NCBI GenBank assembly: GCA_016185505.1
Contig: JACPNL010000010.1
Location: 1 to 55,825 of the forward strand
Reading direction: 5' to 3'
Length of the DNA: 55,825 nt
Origin: Candidatus Yanofskyibacteriota bacterium
Lineage (GTDB): Bacteria > Patescibacteriota > Minisyncoccia > 2-02-FULL-40-12 > GWA2-44-9
The first letter of the stretch is position 1; every line of letters starts with the position of its first letter. A program made the translations under genes and the position numbers. Of this stretch, positions 5,376 through 55,372 are shown in pieces. The notes below the pieces were generated by a model that saw only the letters and a list, made by a program, of their open reading frames with translations, did no database searches and was not told the origin of the DNA.

Positions 5376-5636
5376 CTATTTCTTTTCTACCGCCCACGTT
5401 TTTAATTCCTCGTAAGTCGCCTCGCCGCAGATGGTCTTTTGAGTGTCGGTGTTCACAAAAAATGGTACGCCCATACAAATACCTCGGGCTTCGTCGGCCC
5501 ATTTTTTCTCATTGCTCTCGTCGTGCCAGACCTCCATTCGCTGAACTTTAACCCCAAGCTCCTGTTCCAGCTTGTCTATAAGCGGCTCCATCTTTTGGCA
5601 ATGGCCGCATTCTTTACCGTAGAATTCCATTAACAT
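5376..5636 (-). CDS. Thioredoxin-fold protein (CGHC motif)
   Basis: MLMEFYGKECGHCQKMEPLIDKLEQELGVKVQRMEV...GVPFF. Confidence 0.85.
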   Translation of the reverse strand: MLMEFYGKECGHCQKMEPLIDKLEQELGVKVQRMEVWHDESNEKKWADEARGICMGVPFFVNTDTQKTICGEATYEELKTWAVEKK

Positions 5637-5640
5637 GTTT

Positions 5641-5760
5641 CAAATTTAAAATTTAAAAATCAAAATTAAAAATGACAGTTTAAAATTCAAAATGATTTAG
5701 ATTTAAAATTTTAACATTTTTCATTGTCATTTTCCATTTTAATATTTGCATTTTACATTA
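5641..5760. repeat. AT-rich inverted short-period arms (AAAATTNAAAATGA type)
   Basis: Left arm CAAAATTAAAAATGACAGTTTAAAATTCAAAATG; right arm CATTTTTCATTGTCATTTTCCATTTTAATATTTGCATTTTACATT. Confidence 0.6.
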
Positions 5761-21989: not shown

Positions 21990-23357
21990 TTAATCAAATA
22001 TTTTCAGCTCTCTTATCATTCTAAATTTCCTTAAAAAGTCCCTAGTTTCGGGCACCGCTCCGCGAGAGTTTAAGTCCAACCCGCCGGTAGTTAAATTATA
22101 CTTACTTGGACCGCCGTTATATATCATTCCCCTTACTTCATTTAGTTGATCCGGGGTTAAACCGTTAAACACCGCTCTGGCCCGTGAACCCCCGTTTTGA
22201 ACTCTATTTACAACGGTAGCCATGTGGTCGTCAAATACAAGAATTTGGGCCTTTATGGAATTTTTTATATCAATCCTGCCGATATCGGTATCTTTTATTA
22301 AATTGGCGGAAAGAAAACCGACAACCATGCTGTCATAAGTGCGGGGCATAATTTGGTTGGCGCCGGAGGCGCCGGTCTTAGAAACGGTATATCGAAACGC
22401 TTTTTCTCCATTGGCGCCGAAACGCCACAAAACTCTTTCAGCCTGTTCTCGGCCGCCATCCTCCGATGCAAACATCAGTTTGGGATCTGTTTGTTCGGTT
22501 AGGGTAATTTCTTTAACGAATTTCTGGGTCATCGTGTCGGTAACTAATTTACCCGGAAAAGCCTTGGATTCAACTCCGGCTTTTTCTAACTCCTCAAACG
22601 CTTGCGCGACATGAATATCTAGAAAGTCCTTACCGGAATCAACTATCGCGGGATCGCGTACTGACTTAGAATAAGGCGCGTATACAACATCAGAATATTT
22701 AGGGCCGGTCTTATCTTCGAGATATGCCAGACCGTCGTTACTCATCAAGAACTTATTGCCGATAACAATATATCTTGCCGGCTCACTAATCTTAACCTCA
22801 TCTGACTCAAGAACCGATCCAACAACGCCTAGATCAGAATTAAAATTATTCCACCAATATACAACAACCGATAGCTCGTCTTGATCATCCACGGGTTGAA
22901 AATAAGGCATACTTGTAGGATTCGGTTCGTAGTTTCTTCTCATTCTGTTGGCAATTTGTATCTCTTTTTCGTCCAGCCAATAGCGTCTAAGAAAGACCGC
23001 GCCCGCATCCGCGCTTATATTTGTATCAAGAATAGCTAACTCAATTTCTTTGCCGGTTAATCTGTTGTTTTTTTCTTCGAATTGAAGAGAAGGAGATTGT
23101 TCAAGATATGTTTTTGCCAATTCCATTTGATCAGCCAGAGTCCAGACGGGCATTTGAGGCAAAGGCGATACTTCAAGGTCAATAGTCTTACTCGGCAACG
23201 CCTCGGATATTTGAGCGGCTATTTGCGCGGATAGTTGAGTATATTTGGCGCCCAAAACAAATGCTGATATCACGAGAACTGTTAAAACAAGGAGAAGAAT
23301 TTTGCCGGGAAATTTTTTGAGTTGCATTTTGAGTTGCCTTAGTTTATCAAAGGACAT
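21990..23357 (-). CDS. Membrane-anchored hypothetical protein
   Basis: 455-aa ORF with N-terminal TM KILLLVLTVLVISAFVLGA. Confidence 0.75.
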   Translation of the reverse strand: MSFDKLRQLKMQLKKFPGKILLLVLTVLVISAFVLGAKYTQLSAQIAAQISEALPSKTIDLEVSPLPQMPVWTLADQMELAKTYLEQSPSLQFEEKNNRLTGKEIELAILDTNISADAGAVFLRRYWLDEKEIQIANRMRRNYEPNPTSMPYFQPVDDQDELSVVVYWWNNFNSDLGVVGSVLESDEVKISEPARYIVIGNKFLMSNDGLAYLEDKTGPKYSDVVYAPYSKSVRDPAIVDSGKDFLDIHVAQAFEELEKAGVESKAFPGKLVTDTMTQKFVKEITLTEQTDPKLMFASEDGGREQAERVLWRFGANGEKAFRYTVSKTGASGANQIMPRTYDSMVVGFLSANLIKDTDIGRIDIKNSIKAQILVFDDHMATVVNRVQNGGSRARAVFNGLTPDQLNEVRGMIYNGGPSKYNLTTGGLDLNSRGAVPETRDFLRKFRMIRELKIFD

Positions 23358-23370
23358 AGGAGTAAATTAA

Positions 23371-23580
23371 CATAATTAACCTAATTATTCTAATTAACCT
23401 AATTGACCTAAATAAATCCTCCCGATTTTGTCTGCTTCGCAGAAACAAAATCGAGGATCCTCGATATTCGCAAGCGAATATCGGGACAATGACCTAATAA
23501 CCAATGCCTGAAGGTTTTAGACATTAAAAATTAGGTATTATTTAGAATAATTAGAGCAATTAGAATAATTAGAATAATTT
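23371..23580. repeat. Intergenic inverted-arm repeat, copy 1 (CTAATTNNN units), containing the nested element 23420..23486
   Basis: CTAATTATT CTAATTAAC CTAATTGAC CTAAATAAA ... TTATTTAGAATAATTAGAGCAATTAGAATAATTAGAATAATT. Confidence 0.9.
23420..23486. repeat. 67-bp two-armed palindromic element
   Basis: TCCCGA[TTTTGTCTGCTTCGCAGAAACAAAA]TCGAGGATCCTCGA[TATTCGCAAGCGAATA]TCGGGA. Confidence 0.9.
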
Positions 23581-23581
23581 T

Positions 23582-24940
23582 CTATAGGTTCTTTTCTATC
23601 TCATCAGCCTTGTTCAAAACAGTTCTTGAATAATAGTTACATATGCTTGATGAGCACTTCGTGCTGCCTCCGATATACGCGCGGGCCGCGCCGCTTTCGG
23701 CTGTCCTTGTTTTTTTGTCTGCTCCTCCATTAGCTAATTTGATTGCCGAGGCCATAAAAGCATCCTCTATACTCCACGGATTTGGCGGATTGTGGCCGGT
23801 CAGGCGCGCTACTTCTTCCGCGTAAGCAAGCCACGTTGACGGTATGAATTGGGCCGGCCCCATCGCTCCGCCGCAACCGTAATTTGGTTCGCGGGATACC
23901 TTAACGGAGTTAGGATCAATGCCCAGTTGGCTGGTTATCTTTAGAAAGGCTGCTTCCTCCGTGGCCGCTCTCTGATAGTAATAAGTTCTCCTGTGCGGAT
24001 ACCAGATATCGCCTAAACGCCTGTAGCAAAGGACCATATCGTCCTGCCAATTGCCGGAGCCAACATTCTGTCCAAGACGGGACTCTATTTCCAAAATGGC
24101 AAGCAGGAACGCCGGCCTTATACCGGCTCTGATAGCGGCAAGTTGAGCATACCTTACCGCGTCTTCAGCGGTAATTCCGTGTTGGGTAAGAAAGGTCAGC
24201 TGTTCCCTGATTTTTTCTATATCTCTCTGCGATTTTTGGATCAGTTCCTGAAATTTTGATTCTTGCCCTTTTGTTTCTTTCAGTATGGTATCCTTTTCTT
24301 TTTTATTGATGTCCAAACTCCTTTTCTGAACCGCTTGGATCCCGATTAAATGTTCCAAGTCGGTCTTTTTCCCCTCCAACGAGATTTGGCGGTCTTCCAG
24401 ATCAGTTTTCAGTTGCCTTATGTTCTGGATGGCAATCTTTAGATTATCCTGGGTATTCGCAAGGTCATTAAGATAATTAAAAAAATCGGATAGATTTTCA
24501 TTATTGAATAAAATTTCAGTCAGCGTGATCTGATCGTTCTGATAGGCAATTTTTAGGTATTGAGCCAGAGCGTTTTTGTGTTTTTCTAGCGCTTGTTCCG
24601 ATTCGCCTATTTGTTTTTCTGTCTCCCCTATTTCTAATTTTGTTTTACTTACGGAGAGCTCAAGCCCCCTGATCTCAAGGGTTATTTGGTTAATCTTCGC
24701 GTTCAATTTCCCTATCTCGTTTTCAAGAGTTCTTGATTGTCCCCGAGTTATGTCTATCTGGCTTTGGTATTCATTAATCTGCCTCTGCAGCTCTTCTATC
24801 TGCCTCTGGCGTTCGGCTATCTCATCCTGCACGCCTGCTTTTCCATCCGATACAAAAATTGACAACGACAAAACTACCAAAAAAATAATCAGAAATTTTA
24901 TATATTTTTTCATTTCTTTACTACTCACTACATACCACAC
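23582..24940 (-). CDS. Coiled-coil secreted protein with C-terminal lytic transglycosylase-like domain
   Basis: Long coiled coil; C-terminus AILEIESRLGQNVG...GGAMGPAQFIPSTW. Confidence 0.85.
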   Translation of the reverse strand: MWYVVSSKEMKKYIKFLIIFLVVLSLSIFVSDGKAGVQDEIAERQRQIEELQRQINEYQSQIDITRGQSRTLENEIGKLNAKINQITLEIRGLELSVSKTKLEIGETEKQIGESEQALEKHKNALAQYLKIAYQNDQITLTEILFNNENLSDFFNYLNDLANTQDNLKIAIQNIRQLKTDLEDRQISLEGKKTDLEHLIGIQAVQKRSLDINKKEKDTILKETKGQESKFQELIQKSQRDIEKIREQLTFLTQHGITAEDAVRYAQLAAIRAGIRPAFLLAILEIESRLGQNVGSGNWQDDMVLCYRRLGDIWYPHRRTYYYQRAATEEAAFLKITSQLGIDPNSVKVSREPNYGCGGAMGPAQFIPSTWLAYAEEVARLTGHNPPNPWSIEDAFMASAIKLANGGADKKTRTAESGAARAYIGGSTKCSSSICNYYSRTVLNKADEIEKNL

Positions 24941-41753: not shown

Positions 41754-42893
41754 CTAGCTCGTTAATTCGATGACTGCCAACTCTAACGGCAACTGCGGGA
41801 CGGGAGAGTGTTTTATCTCATTTCGAGCATTGGAAAAACTAACTATCATTTTAATCAACCGTTGGCTATCTACGCTTTGCCCCAGCGTTGAGATATTTTT
41901 TGTTTCCTCGTCGTTCATACCGCTTACGGAAGCAAGCACGGCCGGATTTATTTTTGCCATCAGAACGTTTCTTAGATACTCCACCAAATTGCCGGTGAAA
42001 TTTTCCATATCAGCCCCGGACATATGAATTTTTTGGATAACTTCCATAGAGCCAACCCTGTCATTATTTAAAAGACGGCCAAGAAATTCTGGGTAATATT
42101 TATACGAAACCAAACTCAATATTTCGTTCACGTCTTCAGCGGAAACCTCTTTGTTCGGATCAACGGAAGCATGGATTTTAGTCAGAGCCACTTCCGCGTC
42201 ACGCAACGCTCCGTCGGCAGACATGGCTATGGTTTTTATCGCTTCGTCATTTATCTTAATCCCCTCTTTACCGGCCATCATTTTTAATTTTTCAGAAATT
42301 TGGCCATGATTTAACCGTTTGAAATCAAATCTTTGCACACGGGATAATACCGTCGGCAATATCTTGTGCGGTTCGGTCGTAGCAAGAATAAAAATAACAT
42401 GCGCCGGCGGTTCTTCAAGCGTTTTTAATAAAGCGTTAAAAGCAGATTTTGAAAGCATGTGAACCTCGTCAATGAGAAATATTTTGTATCCCCCGCCCGG
42501 CGCGGCAACCATCGCCGAATCGTTCAGCTCCCGGATATCATCAACCCCCGTCCGCGAAGCGGCGTCTATCTCAATGAGGTCAAGTGAATTCCCCTGACTC
42601 GCGGCAAGACAAAAATGGCAGTTATCACACGGCTCCGTTAACACAGCTTCCGGCCTTCGGCTATCTGCTTTCAGCTGATTGCCGATTACTGGTTGCTGGT
42701 TGCGACGATAGTCACAGTTAAGCGCTTTAGCAAAAATACGGGCCAAAGACGTTTTGCCGGTCCCTCGAGAACCGGTGAATAAATAAGCGTGGCCCACCCG
42801 GCCGCTCTCTAATGCTCCTTGCAGGGTCTTTACTACATGCTCTTGACCCACTATTTCCGAGAATTTTTGCGGACGATACTTACGATATAACAT
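41754..42893 (-). CDS. dnaX: DNA polymerase III gamma/tau subunit
   Basis: MLYRKYRPQKFSEIVGQEHVVKTL, GSRGTGKTSLARIFAKALNC, CDNCHFC, DEVHMLSKSAFNALLKTLEEPP. Confidence 0.97.
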   Translation of the reverse strand: MLYRKYRPQKFSEIVGQEHVVKTLQGALESGRVGHAYLFTGSRGTGKTSLARIFAKALNCDYRRNQQPVIGNQLKADSRRPEAVLTEPCDNCHFCLAASQGNSLDLIEIDAASRTGVDDIRELNDSAMVAAPGGGYKIFLIDEVHMLSKSAFNALLKTLEEPPAHVIFILATTEPHKILPTVLSRVQRFDFKRLNHGQISEKLKMMAGKEGIKINDEAIKTIAMSADGALRDAEVALTKIHASVDPNKEVSAEDVNEILSLVSYKYYPEFLGRLLNNDRVGSMEVIQKIHMSGADMENFTGNLVEYLRNVLMAKINPAVLASVSGMNDEETKNISTLGQSVDSQRLIKMIVSFSNARNEIKHSPVPQLPLELAVIELTS

Positions 42894-42898
42894 AAAAA

Positions 42899-43043
42899 AT
42901 TAACCTAATTATTCTAATTGCTCTAATTGACCTAAATAAACCCTAATGACCGAATAACTAATGACCAAAGGTTTGAGGATTAGACATTAGAAATTGTGAT
43001 TTATTTAGAATAATTAGAATAATTAGGTTAATTAGAATAATTT
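42899..43043. repeat. Intergenic inverted-arm repeat, copy 2 (CTAATTNNN units)
   Basis: CCTAATTATTCTAATTGCTCTAATTGACCTAAATAAA ... TTTATTTAGAATAATTAGAATAATTAGGTTAATTAGAATAATT. Confidence 0.9.
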
Positions 43044-43695
43044 ATTTTCGGAATACTGTCATCTTGACTCCTATAAAACTTACCACTAACGCCGCTGCCG
43101 AACCGGCGATTCCGCCGGCATTGGCCCACTGATCACTGCTCAAGTCGAACATTGGATCTAAAAAATTTACTAAACCAGAAGCTATTCCAATATTCACAAG
43201 TCCGGCGATAATGTAAGCAGTAAAAAATTTTCCCAACTCTGCGGCGTTAATTTTGTTTTCCTCGCCAGAGGCGTTAACGCCCACCAGAGGCGGGTCAACC
43301 TCTGGTTGAGAAAATACCCAGAATTTGTTCCAAAAATAACTGTGAAATGTTGCTATAATAAACGCCGACGCGACGAAAATTGAATACCATAATCCCTTAT
43401 TTATATCCGACCAAGATATTAAAACATTCAAAATCCCAAAATATACCGCCGCGTTGGTAAAACCAACAGCAGAAAATTTGCCGAACTGACCGAAGAATGC
43501 CAGCCACCGCCCCAAAAAATATCCAAGATTTACCCCCAGTATCCAAAGAATGGGAACAAAAATAATCAACCAAGCATAAGATACACTGACAAATTCCGGC
43601 AATTCAAGAAAAACAAATATCCGCCACGCGATCAAACCGGTTATGAGTCCGGTTATTACTGAAAAATAAAAATCTTTGCGAGAAAATTGATGCAC
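43042..43695 (-). CDS. GtrA-like membrane protein
   Basis: Four TM segments; KFSAVGFTNAAVYFGILNVLI, SYFWNKFWVF. Confidence 0.75.
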   Translation of the reverse strand: MHQFSRKDFYFSVITGLITGLIAWRIFVFLELPEFVSVSYAWLIIFVPILWILGVNLGYFLGRWLAFFGQFGKFSAVGFTNAAVYFGILNVLISWSDINKGLWYSIFVASAFIIATFHSYFWNKFWVFSQPEVDPPLVGVNASGEENKINAAELGKFFTAYIIAGLVNIGIASGLVNFLDPMFDLSSDQWANAGGIAGSAAALVVSFIGVKMTVFRK

Positions 43696-43830: not shown

Positions 43831-46266
43831 CTACCCACTACTACCTACTGCGCTGAATTTAGATTTTATCTCCTCCTCTACCTCTTCCCTTGGCCGGCCG
43901 TATTTTAATTTTGACATTTTGTTTATTTCCAGAGCCAATTCTCTGTCACCGGCGCCAAATACCTTTTCGGTATCAACTTTAATATTGAAAGGGCGGGTCG
44001 TCTGGCCACCAACCAATAAACTAGCATAAGCGTTTAAGTTGTCTATGTTGACGAGATCTTGCGGAGTGAAAACCGGTTCAAATTTATTCTTCATAAACTC
44101 GGCGTCATCCGGACCAATCCTGAAAGAAATAATGGAGCCGACATTGCCGAAAACAGCGTCTCTAATCCCTTCCTTAAGTTGTTTTATAAATTGATGGGCA
44201 ATAACCAGATCGAGGCGATACTTTCGCGCTTCCGATAATATCGTTGAAATACTGTCAGTAGTGAAATTCTGAAACTCGTCAATGTAAAGATAAAAATCCT
44301 GGCGCGTTTCATCCGGAATATCCACGCGCGATAAAGCCGCCATCAAGAGCTTGCCGACAATGATCATACCGAGGAGATCTGCGTTCAGAGCGCCTATTTT
44401 GCCCTTGGACAGATTAACCACCAGAATTTTCCTGTTATCCATCGATTCCCGAAAATTTAACGCGCTCTTTTTCTGATTTATAATCGGACGCAAAAATTCG
44501 TTGTAAACAAACGAGGTTATTTTTGAAGAAATATAAGGGGCCATGTTTGCCAAACTTTGCTCGCCTTGCGCTTTCTGCGCTTCAAGTTCCCAGAATTCTC
44601 TAACCAAAGGATTTGTCTCGCGAGAAAGTTTGTCTTTTCTGTAAGCGTCGTCAACCAAAACTCGTGAAATATCAGCCAATACAGGAATTTCATAACGATA
44701 ATCGTCAAGCAAAAGCAAAGCGGAATTCTTGAAATATTTTTCAAACATCGGTCCGCCGGTTGTTCTTAAGTCATACAATTTATTAAATATCTCAAAGAGT
44801 TCGTCTATAACCATTGTTTTTTGCTCGGGATGATCAGGGTTTATCTCAAGCATATTCAAACCCATCGGCCGGGAAATATCACCGGGATCAAAATAAACAA
44901 CATCATTAGTTCTGTCTTTGGGAATAATAGATAAAACAAATTCAGCAAATTCTCCGTGCGGATCAATCACGCAAACCCCTTTGCCGTTCTCTATGTCCTG
45001 CCGAATCATTGACTCCATAAAAACCGACTTGCCCGTGCCGGTCTGACCGATAATATACAAATGCCTTCGCCTGTCGGCATCACTCATTTTGACTAATGTT
45101 TCAACGCCTCGAAAAATATTTTTGCCTAAAACAATCCCCTCCTGTGGCAGATTCGGCGGTGGTTCGGCCGGCTTAGAACGCAAGAATTTTATCCTCGGCG
45201 CAAGAGTGGACGCCAACGGAAAGTGATATAAACTGGTTATTTCTTCCGAGGACAGAAACGTAGACTGCGAATTGTCAAAAAGCCGGAAAGAAAAATTAAA
45301 TAATAACTTTTTTAGCGTTCTGGACGACATATTGATTATTTTTAGACTGTTCATCTCGCCGGCCGCGAACTGCGCTAGTGAACCGTCTATGTCCCCAAGC
45401 AGTTGTTTAGCCCTCATCTCGCTACCAGCCGAAACAACCACCCTTATATTTGTATCAAAAAGCGGCTTCGTCGCCTTGGACTGAATGTTTTTGATTATCT
45501 CCTCGTCAAATGGCGTAACAACACGAAGTTGTTGGTTGTCAGTTGTTGGTTGTTGGTCTTTCTTCGGCTTATGCTTAGCTCGAGACAACGCCTCTGAAAA
45601 CTTATACCCCGATTGCATTTCACGAGCTGTTTTTTGAGCAAGTTTCCGCATATCATCCCGATGCGACGGCCGCATCAATATCTGAACAGCCGCACCTTCG
45701 CCTTCTTTTTCAAGTTTGGACAAAGAAGTGGCTATCTCGCTTAATGGATCGGCCTGCAAATTCTGATATGTCTTGAAGGGTAATAGTGGAATTTTGGACA
45801 GTTTCACATACGCGCCCAGCGCGACGCCGTCAGGATTGAATATATTATAGTCCTTAACTTTCTCCACCTCCGCGGTAGGGAAAAATCCATGAACTTGTTT
45901 TTCAAATACCTGCTCATACGTCTTGGGAACAGCTATGTAGAAAAATATCTCCTCGCCAACATGATGAACCGCCATTTCAAGGGAAATATACGGCTCGCCA
46001 TAAATAAATTTATTCCAACCCCTTGAGTGGATATTGGAAAAAGACGAATACAATTGCTCCATTACGGAAATAAGGTCTTTTTCGGTTTTCTGTTGCGCTT
46101 GCCCTGATCCTGTCGAAGGATCGCGCGGAAGAGTTATCAAAAAAAGTGACATATTGAGCGCCCTTGCTATGTGACCCTTGGTCCTCAAGGAACCAAACAA
46201 CACCAAAGCGGCGACAAAGATAATGGCGATGACAACTAAGTAAGTAATTATCAAAAACAGAGACAA
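43831..46266 (-). CDS. Large ATPase related to TraG/VirB4/DUF87-type conjugative-transfer ATPases
   Basis: LYIIGQTGTGKSVFMESMIRQDIENGKGVCVIDPHGEFAE; DFYLYIDEFQNFTTDSI; VIAHQFIKQL. Confidence 0.88.
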   Translation of the reverse strand: MSLFLIITYLVVIAIIFVAALVLFGSLRTKGHIARALNMSLFLITLPRDPSTGSGQAQQKTEKDLISVMEQLYSSFSNIHSRGWNKFIYGEPYISLEMAVHHVGEEIFFYIAVPKTYEQVFEKQVHGFFPTAEVEKVKDYNIFNPDGVALGAYVKLSKIPLLPFKTYQNLQADPLSEIATSLSKLEKEGEGAAVQILMRPSHRDDMRKLAQKTAREMQSGYKFSEALSRAKHKPKKDQQPTTDNQQLRVVTPFDEEIIKNIQSKATKPLFDTNIRVVVSAGSEMRAKQLLGDIDGSLAQFAAGEMNSLKIINMSSRTLKKLLFNFSFRLFDNSQSTFLSSEEITSLYHFPLASTLAPRIKFLRSKPAEPPPNLPQEGIVLGKNIFRGVETLVKMSDADRRRHLYIIGQTGTGKSVFMESMIRQDIENGKGVCVIDPHGEFAEFVLSIIPKDRTNDVVYFDPGDISRPMGLNMLEINPDHPEQKTMVIDELFEIFNKLYDLRTTGGPMFEKYFKNSALLLLDDYRYEIPVLADISRVLVDDAYRKDKLSRETNPLVREFWELEAQKAQGEQSLANMAPYISSKITSFVYNEFLRPIINQKKSALNFRESMDNRKILVVNLSKGKIGALNADLLGMIIVGKLLMAALSRVDIPDETRQDFYLYIDEFQNFTTDSISTILSEARKYRLDLVIAHQFIKQLKEGIRDAVFGNVGSIISFRIGPDDAEFMKNKFEPVFTPQDLVNIDNLNAYASLLVGGQTTRPFNIKVDTEKVFGAGDRELALEINKMSKLKYGRPREEVEEEIKSKFSAVGSSG

Positions 46267-46271
46267 GGTAA

Positions 46272-46420
46272 AATTAAATTATTCTAATTTCTAATTAACC
46301 TAATTGACCTAAATAAATCCCAATGACCTAATGCCTAAAAACTTATTTCGCTATTTGGGTATTAGACATTAGTCATTATTTAGAATAATTAGAGCAATTA
46401 GAATAATTAGGTCAATTTTT
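46272..46420. repeat. Intergenic inverted-arm repeat, copy 3 (empty site for the 67-bp element)
   Basis: AACCTAATTGACCTAAATAAATCC|CAATGACCTAAT... TTATTTAGAATAATTAGAGCAATTAGAATAATTAGGTCAATT. Confidence 0.9.
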
Positions 46421-46853
46421 CCAGTTTCTTTCTTTCCACTAACATATTATAAAGTTCATCCACCAAAACATCATGGAACGCGTCTATGAGAGCGGGATTA
46501 TTAGACCTTACGGCTTCTTTGACGCCGTCGTCCAGTCCTTTATTGAAAACCATATTAATAAGCGCCTGAACTTTTTCTTTCAACTCCGGCAAAACATAAC
46601 TTAACGCGCTGTCGTCAAGTCCAACTTGGCCGTCGTCCTGTTGCGGCCGAGTCGAACTGGGCTGGGGCTTGGTTGGCGACGGTTGATACTGTGGGATTTG
46701 CTGTTGAATTTTTTCTCCGATAATTTCACGCAGGGTTTCTTTTTCGTGTGGCGATTCCGGCGCCACCTCGCCATGTCCCAAAGCCGCGCGCTTTTCGGCG
46801 ATCTGTTGTTCCAGTTGCGCTATCTCTTGTTCAATAGTCGGCTGATTTTCCAT
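46407..46853 (-). CDS. Hypothetical protein
   Basis: 148-aa ORF upstream of and co-oriented with the ATPase. Confidence 0.75.
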   Translation of the reverse strand: MENQPTIEQEIAQLEQQIAEKRAALGHGEVAPESPHEKETLREIIGEKIQQQIPQYQPSPTKPQPSSTRPQQDDGQVGLDDSALSYVLPELKEKVQALINMVFNKGLDDGVKEAVRSNNPALIDAFHDVLVDELYNMLVERKKLEKLT

Positions 46854-51432: not shown

Positions 51433-51460
51433 ACAGGAAAATAGTTAAGAGAGAATAGAA

Positions 51461-51655
51461 AATGGTATAGAAACATAGAAATAGGTTGTTGGAAATTGGA
51501 AAATGGTATAGAAAGTGGAAAATGGAAAAAGGGTTAAGAAAAAGGGAGGAAAGAAGATGAAAAAACGGTTAATTTCTATTTTCTTATTTACTAACCAATT
51601 TCTAATTTCTATCTTCCATACCAACTTCCATTTTCCATATCACCAATTTCTGGAT
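51461..51655. repeat. Inverted short-period arms without an ORF (GGAAATTGGAAAATGGTATAGAAA type)
   Basis: TAGAAATAGGTTGTTGGAAATTGGAAAATGGTATAGAAA ... TTTCTAATTTCTATCTTCCATACCAACTTCCATTTTCCATATCACCAATTTCTGG. Confidence 0.85.
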
Positions 51656-51676
51656 TGCGCGTGGCGCCAACGAATA

Positions 51677-53560
51677 ATGTCATATAAAAAACTCTCCATA
51701 TTAGTAATATTAGTTGCGCTGGTTTTGTCCATAACAAGCTTGTGGGACGACTCTTTCATCGTTGATGAGGTACCTCATGTCGGAGCCGGATATTCATATA
51801 TTACAAAAGGCGATATGCGGTTAAATCCCGAACACCCACCTCTGGCAAAAGATATAGCCGGAGCAGCTTTATCTTTTCTGGCTATAGATCAAACGGTATT
51901 TTCAACACAATATTGGGTTACTGATATAAATGGACAATGGAATTTCGGAAGAATTTTGATATATAACTCATCAAATGACGTTAATGCTATCACGAGAACC
52001 GCTAAAACGACGATGCTCATATTTTTCGTATTATCGGCTATCCTGATATACCGGTGGACGCGAGAACGATATGGAGATAGGGCGGCCTTCATCGCAACTT
52101 TGTTGTTTTCTTTCTCGCCCACGGTTCTGGCCCACTCGCGTTTTGTCACCACCGATATGCCGGCGCTGTTCGGAGTGCTTCTCGGTACTTACTTTTTTAT
52201 CAAATATTTACAGAAGCCGTCTCGAAGAACATTCTGGCTCGCGGTTCTGGCATTCGGCGTTGCCCAACTAACCAAATTTTCCGTTGTGCTTCTCGCGCCT
52301 CTATTCATATTGATGGTAATCGCGTGGTGCATAGCAAATTCATTATCTTTCAGAAAGTCGGCTGTTTTAGCCACTCGCTCACTGGTGTTGATGACGACGG
52401 GAATCATTCTTGTTGTCTGGCCGGTTTACGCTCTCCATACGATGAATTATCCGCCGGAGAAACAAAGCGCCGACACGGAATTTCATCTTGGTTCTTACGG
52501 CAACCGTTTATTTGCTGATCCCGTTGTATGGGCGTCAGACAAACCAGTCATAAGACCACTCGCCTATTATGCCACCGGAATTCTTATGGTTAATCAGAGA
52601 GCCATAGGCGGCAATAACACATTCTTTCTCGGCGAAGTAAGAAACTATGCCTGGAAACATTATTTTCCCGTCGTGTATGGGATAAAGGAACCAATTGCGT
52701 TTTGGGGATTGGTGGTAATCGTACTTTTGGCTTTGAGCCTGAAGGTTAAAAATTGCCCCGCACCAAACTTTTCCGCTGACCCCGCAGGAAGTTTTCCCGC
52801 TGACCGCCAATCAGATAGAGGGCGGACTTCCAGCGGGGCAGGCCGCCATTCAGAAAAGAGGCGGGTTTGGTACGGGGTTAGTTTTTGTTTCCAATCGCTT
52901 CGCTCTTGGACAAAAACTAACTTCGTTGAGTTCTCAATGCTGTTGTGGCTCGCGATATATTGGTATTTAAGTATTCGTGCCAATTTGAACATCGGGGTTA
53001 GGCACCTACTGCCCACTTACGGGTTTGTATTTATATTACTGGCTGGCCAGCTAGAGCGTATTACGTATTACGTATTACGTATTAAGAGGAAAATAGTCCT
53101 TACTACTTACTGCTTACTACTTACTGCTTTGCTTGGTTGGTATATCGTAGATGTCGTCCGAGTACACCCCTACTATTTAACTTATTTCAATCAACTGGCG
53201 GGCGGACCGGCGGGTGGCCACCGATACGCCGTTGATTCTAACTTGGACTGGGGACAGGACTTAAAGCGGTTAGCAGACTGGGTTGAAAAACGAGGGATAA
53301 ATAAAATTCACTTGGATTATTTTGGTTGGGCTGACCAAGGTTATTATTTAAAAGACAAACTTGTATGGATAAACGCAGGAACATATAAAGACGCTCGTGA
53401 CTTTCTCGCTCAAAATCCTAATGGTGGGCATATCGCCGTATCGGCTTCATTCTACACGGGTTCACGAGGCGACCCGGTCAACAACTACATCTGGCTGGAC
53501 GCGTATCGTCCAATAGCAACTATCGGGAACTCTATATTTGTGTGGAAAATTAGACCTTGA
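51677..53560 (+). CDS. Multi-pass dolichyl-phosphate-mannosyltransferase (PMT/GT39)-like protein
   Basis: IVDEVPHVGAGYSYI...LNPEHPPLAKDIAG; long TM series; track start 51515 reads through a repeat arm. Confidence 0.85.
   Translation: MSYKKLSILVILVALVLSITSLWDDSFIVDEVPHVGAGYSYITKGDMRLNPEHPPLAKDIAGAALSFLAIDQTVFSTQYWVTDINGQWNFGRILIYNSSNDVNAITRTAKTTMLIFFVLSAILIYRWTRERYGDRAAFIATLLFSFSPTVLAHSRFVTTDMPALFGVLLGTYFFIKYLQKPSRRTFWLAVLAFGVAQLTKFSVVLLAPLFILMVIAWCIANSLSFRKSAVLATRSLVLMTTGIILVVWPVYALHTMNYPPEKQSADTEFHLGSYGNRLFADPVVWASDKPVIRPLAYYATGILMVNQRAIGGNNTFFLGEVRNYAWKHYFPVVYGIKEPIAFWGLVVIVLLALSLKVKNCPAPNFSADPAGSFPADRQSDRGRTSSGAGRHSEKRRVWYGVSFCFQSLRSWTKTNFVEFSMLLWLAIYWYLSIRANLNIGVRHLLPTYGFVFILLAGQLERITYYVLRIKRKIVLTTYCLLLTALLGWYIVDVVRVHPYYLTYFNQLAGGPAGGHRYAVDSNLDWGQDLKRLADWVEKRGINKIHLDYFGWADQGYYLKDKLVWINAGTYKDARDFLAQNPNGGHIAVSASFYTGSRGDPVNNYIWLDAYRPIATIGNSIFVWKIRP
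52756..52877. repeat. Nested pair of CCCCGCA... palindromic elements within the glycosyltransferase gene
   Basis: Outer CCCCGCACCAAAC...GTTTGGTACGGGG interrupted by inner CCCCGCAGGAAGT...ACTTCCAGCGGGG (52780..52838). Confidence 0.9.
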
Positions 53561-53561
53561 T

Positions 53562-54077
53562 TTATAGAAATAGGTTGTCAGAAATTAGAAAGTGGTATGG
53601 AGAATGGAGGATAGAAACTGGTATTCGTATACAAGTTAGTCATTCTCATGAAAATTTTTCCATACTTCACGAAGACGAAATAGCTGACGCGAAGAACTAT
53701 CATAAGAATCTATAAGTTCACTGCAAAGTTTAATATCAATATTGTTAAAATAAACATCACGACACACAGACAGGTGGTTAATCATTTCATTACACTCACC
53801 GATTGCGTCATCAAGATATTTTTGCCAATTTTTTCTTTGGTAGCGTTTAGCGAATCCTTCCGCTAAAAGAGCGCATGGCGCTTTACAAGATCTTCTCATT
53901 TGAGATGCTAGATCATATTTTTCCTCTTTTGGCAGACGGGGAACAACCTGTGTCAAAATAATAATCTGATTTTTATAAAGTTGCTGATATACCCGCAAAT
54001 CTTGAAAACTCTTAATGGTTTTATTACCGTTATCCATTTTCTAATTTCTATACCATTTTCTATTTTCTAGCAACTAC
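53562..54077. mobile_element. Candidate inverted-repeat-bounded element carrying the four-helix-bundle gene
   Basis: Left TAGAAATAGGTTGTCAGAAATTAGAAAGTGGTATGGAGAATGG; right (revcomp) GAAAGTAGTTGCTAGAAAATAGAAAATGGTATAGAAATTAGAAAATGG. Confidence 0.5.
53636..54037 (-). CDS. Four-helix-bundle protein (S23 / 23S rRNA intervening-sequence protein family; related to Avd-type proteins)
   Basis: KSFQDLRVYQQLYKNQIIILTQVVPRLPKEEKYDLASQMRRSCKAPCALLAEGFAKR...IGECNEMINHLSVC. Confidence 0.93.
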   Translation of the reverse strand: MDNGNKTIKSFQDLRVYQQLYKNQIIILTQVVPRLPKEEKYDLASQMRRSCKAPCALLAEGFAKRYQRKNWQKYLDDAIGECNEMINHLSVCRDVYFNNIDIKLCSELIDSYDSSSRQLFRLREVWKNFHEND

Positions 54078-54079
54078 TT

Positions 54080-54985
54080 TCTAAAACAAAAGGTCCTCCA
54101 GCTCCGACTATAGCCGGAACGAGGACCGTGGGTGTTTGTACCCCTTGATTCCACCATTTCCAAGGGGCTCACTTCGCCTAGGGGCGAGAGTGAGAGCGCC
54201 GAAACCGCCAGGCGATCTGGGATTTTTAGGCCCCAGGAATTTTCAATTCGCCTCGCCTCGCGCGGTTTCGGCAATTTGGGGGGGTCACGCCATTCGGTCT
54301 CCAGTTTTTAGTGGGTCGCCCCGACACGCACCTCGCGCGCCGGACCCCGGACCTATTGACCACCGTTTTTATCGGTGGCTGGCGTGACCTTCTCGGTGGC
54401 TGAGGGACAGTGCGATTACTGGCCGGGAACTCATCATCGCCGGTGCTTCATCGTTGCACCGCCTTCAGCCATCTTTTTGGGCCCTACAATTATTTTTTAG
54501 AAATCCTCCCCGAAGAGAGTTGTATTTGAATGGGCCCGAGAGAAACCAATAAAACTTTAAGGCGATATCGTCCTTCGATCCTGTCAGACCATTAGTATCT
54601 TACTTGAATGTCTGGATTACAATGCTTTATTGGCTTGTCTCGAGCCCGTTGCCGAGCCCAAGTCTTATATAAGGTACTTGAGATATATGTTATCACATCT
54701 ATCCCTTTCTGTAAACCCTTATTCAAGGATTCACGGAAAGAGATGCTGGTTTTTTGCCGGACCAGCAAACCGTGGGAATTTGTGCTCGCGGGGGTCCCCC
54801 GCCAGTTTTATCGTTTCAAGCCCTTTTCACCTATTCCTTTCTGCCGGCTAACATATGGGAGCGCGGGCAGTACACGAACCCCGCTCCGGGTGAAAACGAG
54901 CCGCAGAACTTTTTTTACTAGCGCTTTACGATGCGCCAGCGTCCGCGGCGGTGGCATCAGTAAACCCTACGCTTAACAATGATGC
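54080..54985 (-). ncRNA. Large structured-RNA region; upstream (minus-strand) part resembles the 3' end of a strongly divergent or degenerate 23S rRNA
   Basis: AAGATACTAATGGTCTGACAGGATC at ~54577-54600 fits a 23S 3' terminus; many long helices (GGTCACGCCA/TGGCGTGACC, GCCGAAACCGC/GCGGTTTCGGC); no convincing ORF. Confidence 0.35.
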
Positions 54986-55045
54986 GGAGGGCCTCTGGAG
55001 GGTACAGTCCTGTACCCTCCTCTGACGAAAGGAGTCGAGGTTGGC

Positions 55046-55288
55046 CTAGAGCCGAGCATTCCGTGCGTGGTTTGCCCAGCGCCGCCCGGCTAGCCGGCCG
55101 ATGGCGGGTACGTCCTCGATGGGAACGAATCGCCGAAGCGGGTCGCGTCCGAAGACGCGCTCGTCTTCCTCACGCGCCTCCTCGCATCCGAAATAGGACG
55201 CAAGGACCGCGCCGTCGTTTCGACTGTTGTCGAGGACGAACGTGCCGCCGAATTGAGCGAAATTCTGCTCCGAACCTACTCTTGCCAT
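55046..55288 (-). CDS. Small GC-rich hypothetical protein
   Basis: GGAGG RBS 6 nt before the ATG; 80 codons. Confidence 0.55.
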   Translation of the reverse strand: MARVGSEQNFAQFGGTFVLDNSRNDGAVLASYFGCEEAREEDERVFGRDPLRRFVPIEDVPAIGRLAGRRWANHARNARL

Positions 55289-55372
55289 TTTTGCCTCCGC
55301 GAAAAGGGTGTTAATAAGAACAAACTCGTACCCTATCTTATAACATACCCCAAAAATTTTTGCAATAGGTCA

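What the first reader, a model, noticed from the sequence alone, without database searches (positions are those of the whole stretch)
53562..54077. Four-helix-bundle (S23/IVP-like) gene bounded by inverted short-period arms next to a 23S-like RNA region: candidate mobile element
Both boundaries read inward as GAAATAGGTTGTCAGAAATTAGAAAGTGGTATGGAGAATGG / GAAAGTAGTTGCTAGAAAATAGAAAATGGTATAGAAATTAGAAAATGG, and the start codon lies in the right arm (AAAATGGATAACGG). S23-family proteins are classically encoded by intervening sequences inside 23S rRNA hairpins (established), and the family is related to Avd of diversity-generating retroelements. A free-standing inverted-arm version beside an rRNA-like region could be a transposable relative.
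Basis: partly seen in the sequence, partly recalled or inferred. Interest (0 to 1): 0.75.

Follow-up and report, generated by a model that had tools for sequence, protein, structure and literature searches.

The report
S23 genes framed by heptamer repeat arms
A small bacterial gene of unknown purpose (the S23 / "four helix bundle" family) sits between two mirror-image arms of 7-9-letter repeats; the same layout recurs across bacteria, gene and arms appear to travel together, and gene-less arm pairs litter genomes that have the gene, so this looks like a mobile element that could explain many of the unexplained heptamer repeats of bacteria.

Summary
The arms are real: inverted score 24 against 9.9 ± 1.8 in shuffles, 0 of 5000. 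The gene is an S23/IVP protein. The neighbouring "23S-like" region matches no Rfam family. The pattern is general. In 41 related genomes, 34 of 72 S23-family genes have inverted arms above the 99th percentile of cross-locus pairs, against 3 of 70 neighbour genes. The eight armless weak homologs are mostly DGR Avd genes. The arms are degenerate tandem repeats of period 7, sometimes 8 or 9, also in other phyla. In non-orthologous S23 pairs of ≥60% identity, 85% share arm sequence in the same orientation, against 4% background. This genome holds 136 such arrays in 370 kb (shuffles about 1 per period); gene-less pairs share ends with the S23 element. Congeners lack the window element at the orthologous site; other sites show empty junctions or a different class. 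Best reading: an S23-heptad mobile element, organised like RAYT/REPIN but without a transposase, with 23S rRNA IVSs a special case. Movement, enzyme and protein-arm binding are not shown. I found no paper linking S23 genes to heptamer repeats.

The parts
53563..54085 (-). whole S23-heptad element
   Evidence: arms plus gene; absent at the orthologous site in G001 and G002
53636..54037 (-). S23/IVP-family gene, 133 aa, four-helix bundle
   Evidence: PF05635 E 6.7e-15; TIGR02436; AlphaFold pLDDT 93, best PDB match 2GSC TM 0.79-0.89, then 2RLD and DGR Avd
54034..54085 (-). 5' arm (gene orientation), TTTAGAAAGTAGTTGCTAGAAAATAGAAAATGGTATAGAAATTAGAAAATGG; contains the start codon
53563..53625 (+). 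3' arm, reads inward as the inverted copy of the 5' arm
51440..51661 (.). gene-less inverted arm pair of the same class, between the two PMT_2 glycosyltransferase genes
   Evidence: pair 51487-51533 / 51570-51638, inverted 21, direct 4
42885..43051 (.). solo nonamer element sharing ends with the S23 element at mreB/mreC (contig C5)
   Evidence: orthologous site in G002 holds a different class
23353..23595 (.). solo nonamer element with a palindromic insert
   Evidence: empty site without visible target duplication in G002
46240..46430 (.). nonamer-class arrays, probably another solo pair
5626..5740 (.). solo inverted pair, period-7 class of the resident S23 genes on C24 and C29

Best explanation
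This is one copy of a widespread S23-heptad element. An S23/Avd-family four-helix-bundle gene lies between inverted arms made of degenerate 7- to 9-nt tandem repeats; gene and arms are inherited and move as a unit, and gene-less arm pairs are its dispersed derivatives, as MITEs are to transposons or REPINs to RAYTs. SHOWN by comparison: arms are specific to S23 genes; arm sequence and orientation follow the protein lineage across non-orthologous sites; solo elements share the S23 element's ends; insertion sites are empty or differently occupied in close relatives; related genomes without armed S23 genes have few such arrays. INFERRED: the S23 oligomer binds the long imperfect hairpin (RNA or single-stranded DNA) of its own arm class, as its relative Avd does in the DGR ribonucleoprotein, and lets it be copied into intergenic sites by machinery not encoded in the element. 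23S rRNA IVSs with an S23 ORF would be elements that landed in rRNA.
For: Arms are S23-specific: inverted flank score median 17.5 for 72 genes, against 10.0 for neighbour genes (p 4e-10) and 10.0 cross-locus (p 2e-21). The eight armless homologs score at most 11.5, and seven of them sit beside a reverse transcriptase, so they are Avd. Outside the order: 42/79 named loci from many phyla exceed the cross-locus 99th percentile; period 7 in 54/90 loci against 6/90 control windows; cyanobacterial plasmid copies sit inside cas, cmr and RNR gene sets. Co-inheritance: non-orthologous pairs at least 60% identical share arms in 85% (same orientation) against 15% (opposite) and 4% background; similarity stops at or near the arms' outer ends. 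Solo elements: 136 arrays in 370 kb; 80 match resident S23 classes; 16 adjacent pairs, all inverted; shared termini. Polymorphism: mreB/mreC, the window site, and sites 23353 and 42885. Density 0.161/kb in S23+ against 0.015/kb in S23- genomes, p 0.003.
Against: No movement was observed and no catalytic domain is present. About 40% of the named loci have no period-7 array in either flank, and 13 of 79 have direct arms above threshold. 56 of 136 arrays in this genome match no resident S23 class, and G001 has nonamer solos although no nonamer-class S23 was found there. The density correlation uses 21 related genomes without phylogenetic correction, and density also correlates with Y1 transposase number (rho 0.49; partial 0.28 against 0.41 for S23). 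In Xanthomonadaceae the S23 gene appears at the same site in four genomes, so some copies look long fixed. The arms of the window protein's nearest relative (L260, 56% identity) do not resemble the window arms.
Confidence: 0.72

Rival explanations
1. The heptamer hairpins are moved by another enzyme (Y1/IS200-RAYT type) and S23 is a passenger gene caught between two of them.
For: G000 has two Y1_Tnp genes; array density correlates with Y1 number (rho 0.49).
Against: The two Y1 genes have no period 7-9 arrays in their flanks and instead carry other GC-rich palindromes (CCTGTGGATAACCGACATT..., TGGAGGGCGGCCCTCCA), as RAYTs do. G012 (100% complete, 4 S23 genes) and G034 have S23 genes and no Y1 hit. 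Arm sequence follows the S23 protein lineage with orientation kept.
Confidence: 0.1
2. The arms are regulatory or RNA-processing hairpins of the S23 gene (autoregulation, RNase III sites) and the dispersed pairs are a regulon; nothing is mobile.
For: Start codon lies in the arm in the window element; the 5' arm is purine-rich and the 3' arm pyrimidine-rich across phyla (purine 0.66 against 0.35, p 2e-9). Coxiella IVS is cut by RNase III beside its GACAGAT heptamers (PMC4990558).
Against: Solo elements have defined ends and are missing or replaced by another class at orthologous sites; arrays also lie inside ORFs.
Confidence: 0.08
3. Heptamer arrays arise locally by replication slippage or template switching and S23 genes merely tolerate or stabilise them.
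For: Unit sequence differs greatly between loci while the period stays 7; heptanucleotides are described as the most abundant category of long repeats in most genomes (PMC4679880).
Against: Ten dispersed solo copies share the same termini and inner motifs; the same class recurs with related S23 genes at unrelated sites; arrays are rare in S23-free relatives.
Confidence: 0.08

Closest known systems
23S rRNA intervening sequences with an S23 ORF (e.g. Coxiella burnetii IVS, PMC4990558)
   Same: S23 gene between complementary ends that form a long stem; heptamers (GACAGAT x3) directly before the start codon; described as a selfish element of sporadic distribution
   Different: this copy and the others read here are not in rRNA; gene-less relatives are dispersed through the genome; arm classes follow S23 lineages
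RAYT / REP-REPIN systems (PMC3116915, PMC2817692)
   Same: gene flanked by inverted palindromic repeats; many gene-less inverted doublets in the genome
   Different: protein is a four-helix bundle without the HUH/Y1 domain; repeats are degenerate 7-9-mer arrays; both systems coexist in this genome
Bacterial heptamer repeats: cyanobacterial STRRs, Xanthomonas GGGAATC (PMC4692102), Beggiatoaceae TAACTGA (PMC4679880)
   Same: same 7-nt period; 70 convergent inverted pairs reported in X. campestris; the Xanthomonas S23 gene read here has two exact GGGAATC units in its flanks
   Different: these papers describe the repeats without mention of an S23 gene (term searches)
Avd of diversity-generating retroelements
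   Same: homologous fold and Pfam family
   Different: Avd genes sit beside a reverse transcriptase and have no arms; no reverse transcriptase adjoins the window gene
23S_rRNA_IVP genes reported in cas loci (PMC3936711)
   Same: same family in the same kind of places (cas6/cas4, cmr2/cmr3)
   Different: read there as a function associated with CRISPR-Cas; the arms suggest insertions

Membership tests
S23 / 23S_rRNA_IVP (PF05635) | profile match over curated cut-off | tested here: met
   55.7 against 33.8 bits
S23 / 23S_rRNA_IVP (PF05635) | four-helix bundle like 2GSC | tested here: met
   2GSC is the best PDB match, TM up to 0.90
S23 / 23S_rRNA_IVP (PF05635) | motif RxxxSxxxNxxE | tested here: inconclusive
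   R49 and E60 kept; S is A53 and N is L57 in the window protein, likewise in its 56% relative L260 (sequence)
S23 / 23S_rRNA_IVP (PF05635) | pentameric assembly | not testable with these tools
   only a monomer was predicted
23S rRNA intervening sequence | located within 23S rRNA | tested here: not met
   no rRNA match in the window
23S rRNA intervening sequence | inverted ends around an S23 ORF | tested here: met
RAYT/REPIN | Y1 (HUH) transposase | tested here: not met
   protein matches PF05635 only; no HUH motif in its sequence, and in 1 of 152 S23 proteins
RAYT/REPIN | gene flanked by repeats plus dispersed inverted doublets | tested here: met
Diversity-generating retroelement | adjacent reverse transcriptase | tested here: not met
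   the single RVT_1 hit of this genome lies on contig C4
Diversity-generating retroelement | template and variable repeats | not tested
   not searched for
Classical IS/MITE | target-site duplication | tested here: not met
   none evident at ten solo elements; the 23353 site aligned to the empty G002 site shows none (a single, diverged comparison)
Classical IS/MITE | encoded transposase | tested here: not met
Heptamer repeat (STRR) class | tandem 7-nt period | tested here: met
   period-7 signal in S23 flanks; window arms best at period 7

The most novel reading that the evidence does not exclude
S23 proteins are the partners of a new class of mobile elements that encode no recombinase: each S23 variant recognises a hairpin of its own 7-9-nt repeat class and drives its spread with host enzymes. 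This would explain many heptamer repeats of bacteria and the 23S rRNA IVSs as products of one process.
Probability: 0.45. Interest if true: 0.93.

Novelty: new variant of a known kind. Interest (0 to 1): 0.85.

Why it matters
Heptamer repeats have been described in cyanobacteria, Xanthomonas and Beggiatoaceae with their origin open, and the S23/IVP family has had no known function. The arms tie the two together and give each a testable role: a protein whose target is written beside its own gene. It would also turn 23S rRNA IVSs into one case of a general element and recast S23 genes in CRISPR loci as insertions. Because arm classes follow protein lineages, binding specificity can be tested directly.

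Tried and rejected
(1) An rRNA or other known RNA next door: no Rfam match even at E <= 1. (2) Dependence on a resident reverse transcriptase: G034 (97% complete), G022 and G023 have S23 genes over the cut-off and no RVT_1 hit. (3) Y1 transposase as the partner: see rivals. (4) Compensatory pairing of the stems: in the nonamer class the opposed variable triplets match less often than shuffled (17% against 30%), so the stem is 6-bp helices with 3x3 internal loops; the copies are related, so this proves nothing about selection. (5) The window protein's nearest relative (L260, 56% identity) does not share its arms; sharing is common only from 60% identity. (6) The known units TAACTGA and GACAGAT were not found twice or more in the S23 flanks checked; GGGAATC was, in Xanthomonas vasicola and a Rhodanobacter. 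(7) Literature: the searches made found no paper joining S23 and heptamers; preprints outside PMC and most subscription journals are not held.

Full report
Observation. The window carries a 133-aa S23/IVP gene at 53636-54037 on the minus strand (PF05635 E 6.7e-15; TIGR02436). Its flanks, 53563-53625 and 54034-54085, are inverted, degenerate copies of each other: score 24 inverted, 7.5 direct, shuffles 9.9 ± 1.8, 0 of 5000 as high. The start codon is in the 5' arm. The supposed 23S-like neighbour matches no Rfam family and is recognisable only in the genus.

All six S23 genes of this genome have short-period flanks, each of its own kind. Window class: AGAAATTAGAAAATGG. C5 class: ATTAGAATAATTAGGTCA (period 9). 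C24 and C29: AAATATCAAAAATCAAAATGACA (period 7). C3: GGAAATGTTCGAAATGATG (period 9). C17: CGAAATTTCGATATGTCGATATTT (period 8, itself palindromic). For C3 and C17 the inverted match itself is weak (14.5 and 10.0); their case rests on the period (0.82).

Generality within the order. A PF05635 search of 41 genomes gave 73 genes (loci). For 72 genes the 5' flank was compared with the reverse complement of the 3' flank. Median inverted score 17.5, direct 10.8 (paired p 5e-9), cross-locus 10.0 (p 2e-21), neighbour genes 10.0 (p 4e-10). 34 genes exceed the 99th percentile of cross-locus pairs, against 3 of 70 neighbour genes. The flanks peak at periods 7 and 14. Eight weak homologs (L034-L038, L074-L076) score at most 11.5; seven of them lie beside a reverse transcriptase (positions), and L037 shows Avd, RT and repeated target-like genes on reading. 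They are Avd of diversity-generating retroelements, a natural control: same family, no arms.

Generality in life. S23 genes on cyanobacterial plasmids lie between cas6 and cas4, between Cmr2 and cmr3, or on the opposite strand between the two ribonucleotide reductase genes, with arms such as (GGTGACA)n, (GGGAGTA)n, (GGAGTCA)n and (GGGTGTA)n. A scan of genome contigs gave 80 loci in many phyla and in Methanophagales archaea. Of 79 tested, 42 exceed the cross-locus 99th percentile in inverted and 13 in direct orientation. Period-7 arrays occur in a flank of 54 of 90 such loci (named genomes and plasmids), against 6 of 90 control windows; 5' arms are purine-rich and 3' arms pyrimidine-rich (purine 0.66 against 0.35, p 2e-9). 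In Xanthomonas vasicola the gene lies between accB and accC (reading of the ORFs) with GGGAATC-type arms, the unit described as an unexplained repeat in Xanthomonas with 70 convergent pairs in X. campestris (PMC4692102). The Coxiella 23S rRNA IVS has three GACAGAT heptamers directly before its S23 start codon (PMC4990558).

Gene and arms travel together. Among non-orthologous pairs within the order, arm similarity above the 95th percentile of background is seen in 85% of 40 pairs with at least 60% protein identity, 24% of 82 pairs at 50-60%, and 4-6% below 50%; in the opposite orientation only 15% of the closest pairs. Alignments of related elements at different sites begin and end at or near the arms' outer ends, for example L029/L050, L063/L068 and L067/L069. 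These pairs are not phylogenetically independent.

Solo elements. In 370 kb of this genome there are 136 arrays with periods 7-9; per period, counts at the stricter setting are 50, 21 and 42 against about 1 in codon-block shuffles (the count and the floor of 1 both include one masked contig, L219, left out of the 136). 80 match an arm class of a resident S23 gene; counts per resident class exceed those for S23 arms of other genomes (p 0.004), although some foreign AT-rich classes also match many. All 16 pairs of adjacent similar arrays are inverted. Ten nonamer solos share their termini, AAATT-nnn-(CTAATT-nnn)... to ...(AATTAG-nnn)-AATTT, with the S23 element at mreB/mreC, and diverge just outside; no target-site duplication is evident. 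Predicted folds of five of them are long hairpins (-38 to -71 kcal/mol).

Empty sites. At the mreB-mreC junction most relatives have 0-11 nt; G000 has the S23 element, while G002, G007 and G026 have short repeat-rich inserts of other classes. At the window element's site, congeners G001 and G002 keep the glycosyltransferase and the GC-rich region but have no S23 gene and no arrays; the intergenic DNA there is otherwise diverged. The solo at 42885 is replaced in G002 by a solo of class ATTACGA, the class of G002's own S23 gene L049. The solo at 23353 is absent in G002, where the flanks join without a visible duplication.

Association. In 20 related genomes sampled at about 40 kb each plus G000, array density is 0.161/kb with armed S23 genes and 0.015/kb without (p 0.003; Spearman 0.56). 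Density also correlates with Y1 transposase number (0.49), but the partial correlation is stronger for S23 (0.41 against 0.28), and the two Y1 genes of G000 carry their own, different palindromes. Several genomes with S23 genes over the cut-off lack a detectable reverse transcriptase.

Protein. The model is a confident four-helix bundle (pLDDT 93). Its best PDB matches are S23 structures 2GSC and 2RLD, followed by Avd in DGR ribonucleoprotein complexes. It has no known catalytic domain.

Mechanism. Shown by comparison: a unit of gene plus arms, gene-less derivatives with the same ends, and variable occupancy of sites. Inferred: binding of the S23 oligomer to its own hairpin, by analogy with Avd, and copying by machinery not encoded in the element. 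Whether the intermediate is RNA or single-stranded DNA is open; the missing target duplication would fit either.

Novelty. The S23-IVS is a known selfish element, and RAYT/REPIN is the nearest known organisation. A free-standing, genome-wide S23 element with class-specific heptad arms was not found in the literature searched. I therefore call it a new variant of a known kind; if S23 is shown to drive the spread, it would be a new kind.

Noticed in passing
window 54090-55330: GC-rich stretch between the S23 element and a DksA/TraR-like gene, with a terminator-like hairpin at 54092-54128 on the minus strand; pieces conserved (71-88%) only in the two congeners, no Rfam match; possibly a fast-evolving large non-coding RNA.
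   Followed up: partly
window 53043-53138: Heptamer arrays (ATTACGT)n and (TTACTAC)n lie inside the open reading frame of the PMT_2 glycosyltransferase and are read as protein.
   Followed up: no
L004:2380-2560: Arrays of the C3 S23 class lie in frame inside a large membrane-protein ORF, encoding a low-complexity insert (NDGNDGSVRNDN...AIQQLQQAKRS).
   Followed up: no
L201:44-301 and L210:3604-3840: Two Y1 (RAYT-like) transposase genes flanked by their own GC-rich palindromes: a REP system coexists with the S23 system.
   Followed up: partly
nonamer class, e.g. window 42885-43051: Variable triplets between CTAATT units come from a small set (ATT 42, GAC 20, AAC 14, GCT 11, ATA 7 of 101), which does not look like random point changes.
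   Followed up: partly
L079, L081, L085: S23 genes inside type I-D and III-B CRISPR-cas gene sets on cyanobacterial plasmids, with heptamer arms: probably insertions rather than cas genes.
   Followed up: partly
L037:1271-1900: Diversity-generating retroelement with Avd, reverse transcriptase and repeated FSHAP...FNDGKAKFDTNWF target-like stretches in relative G013.
   Followed up: no
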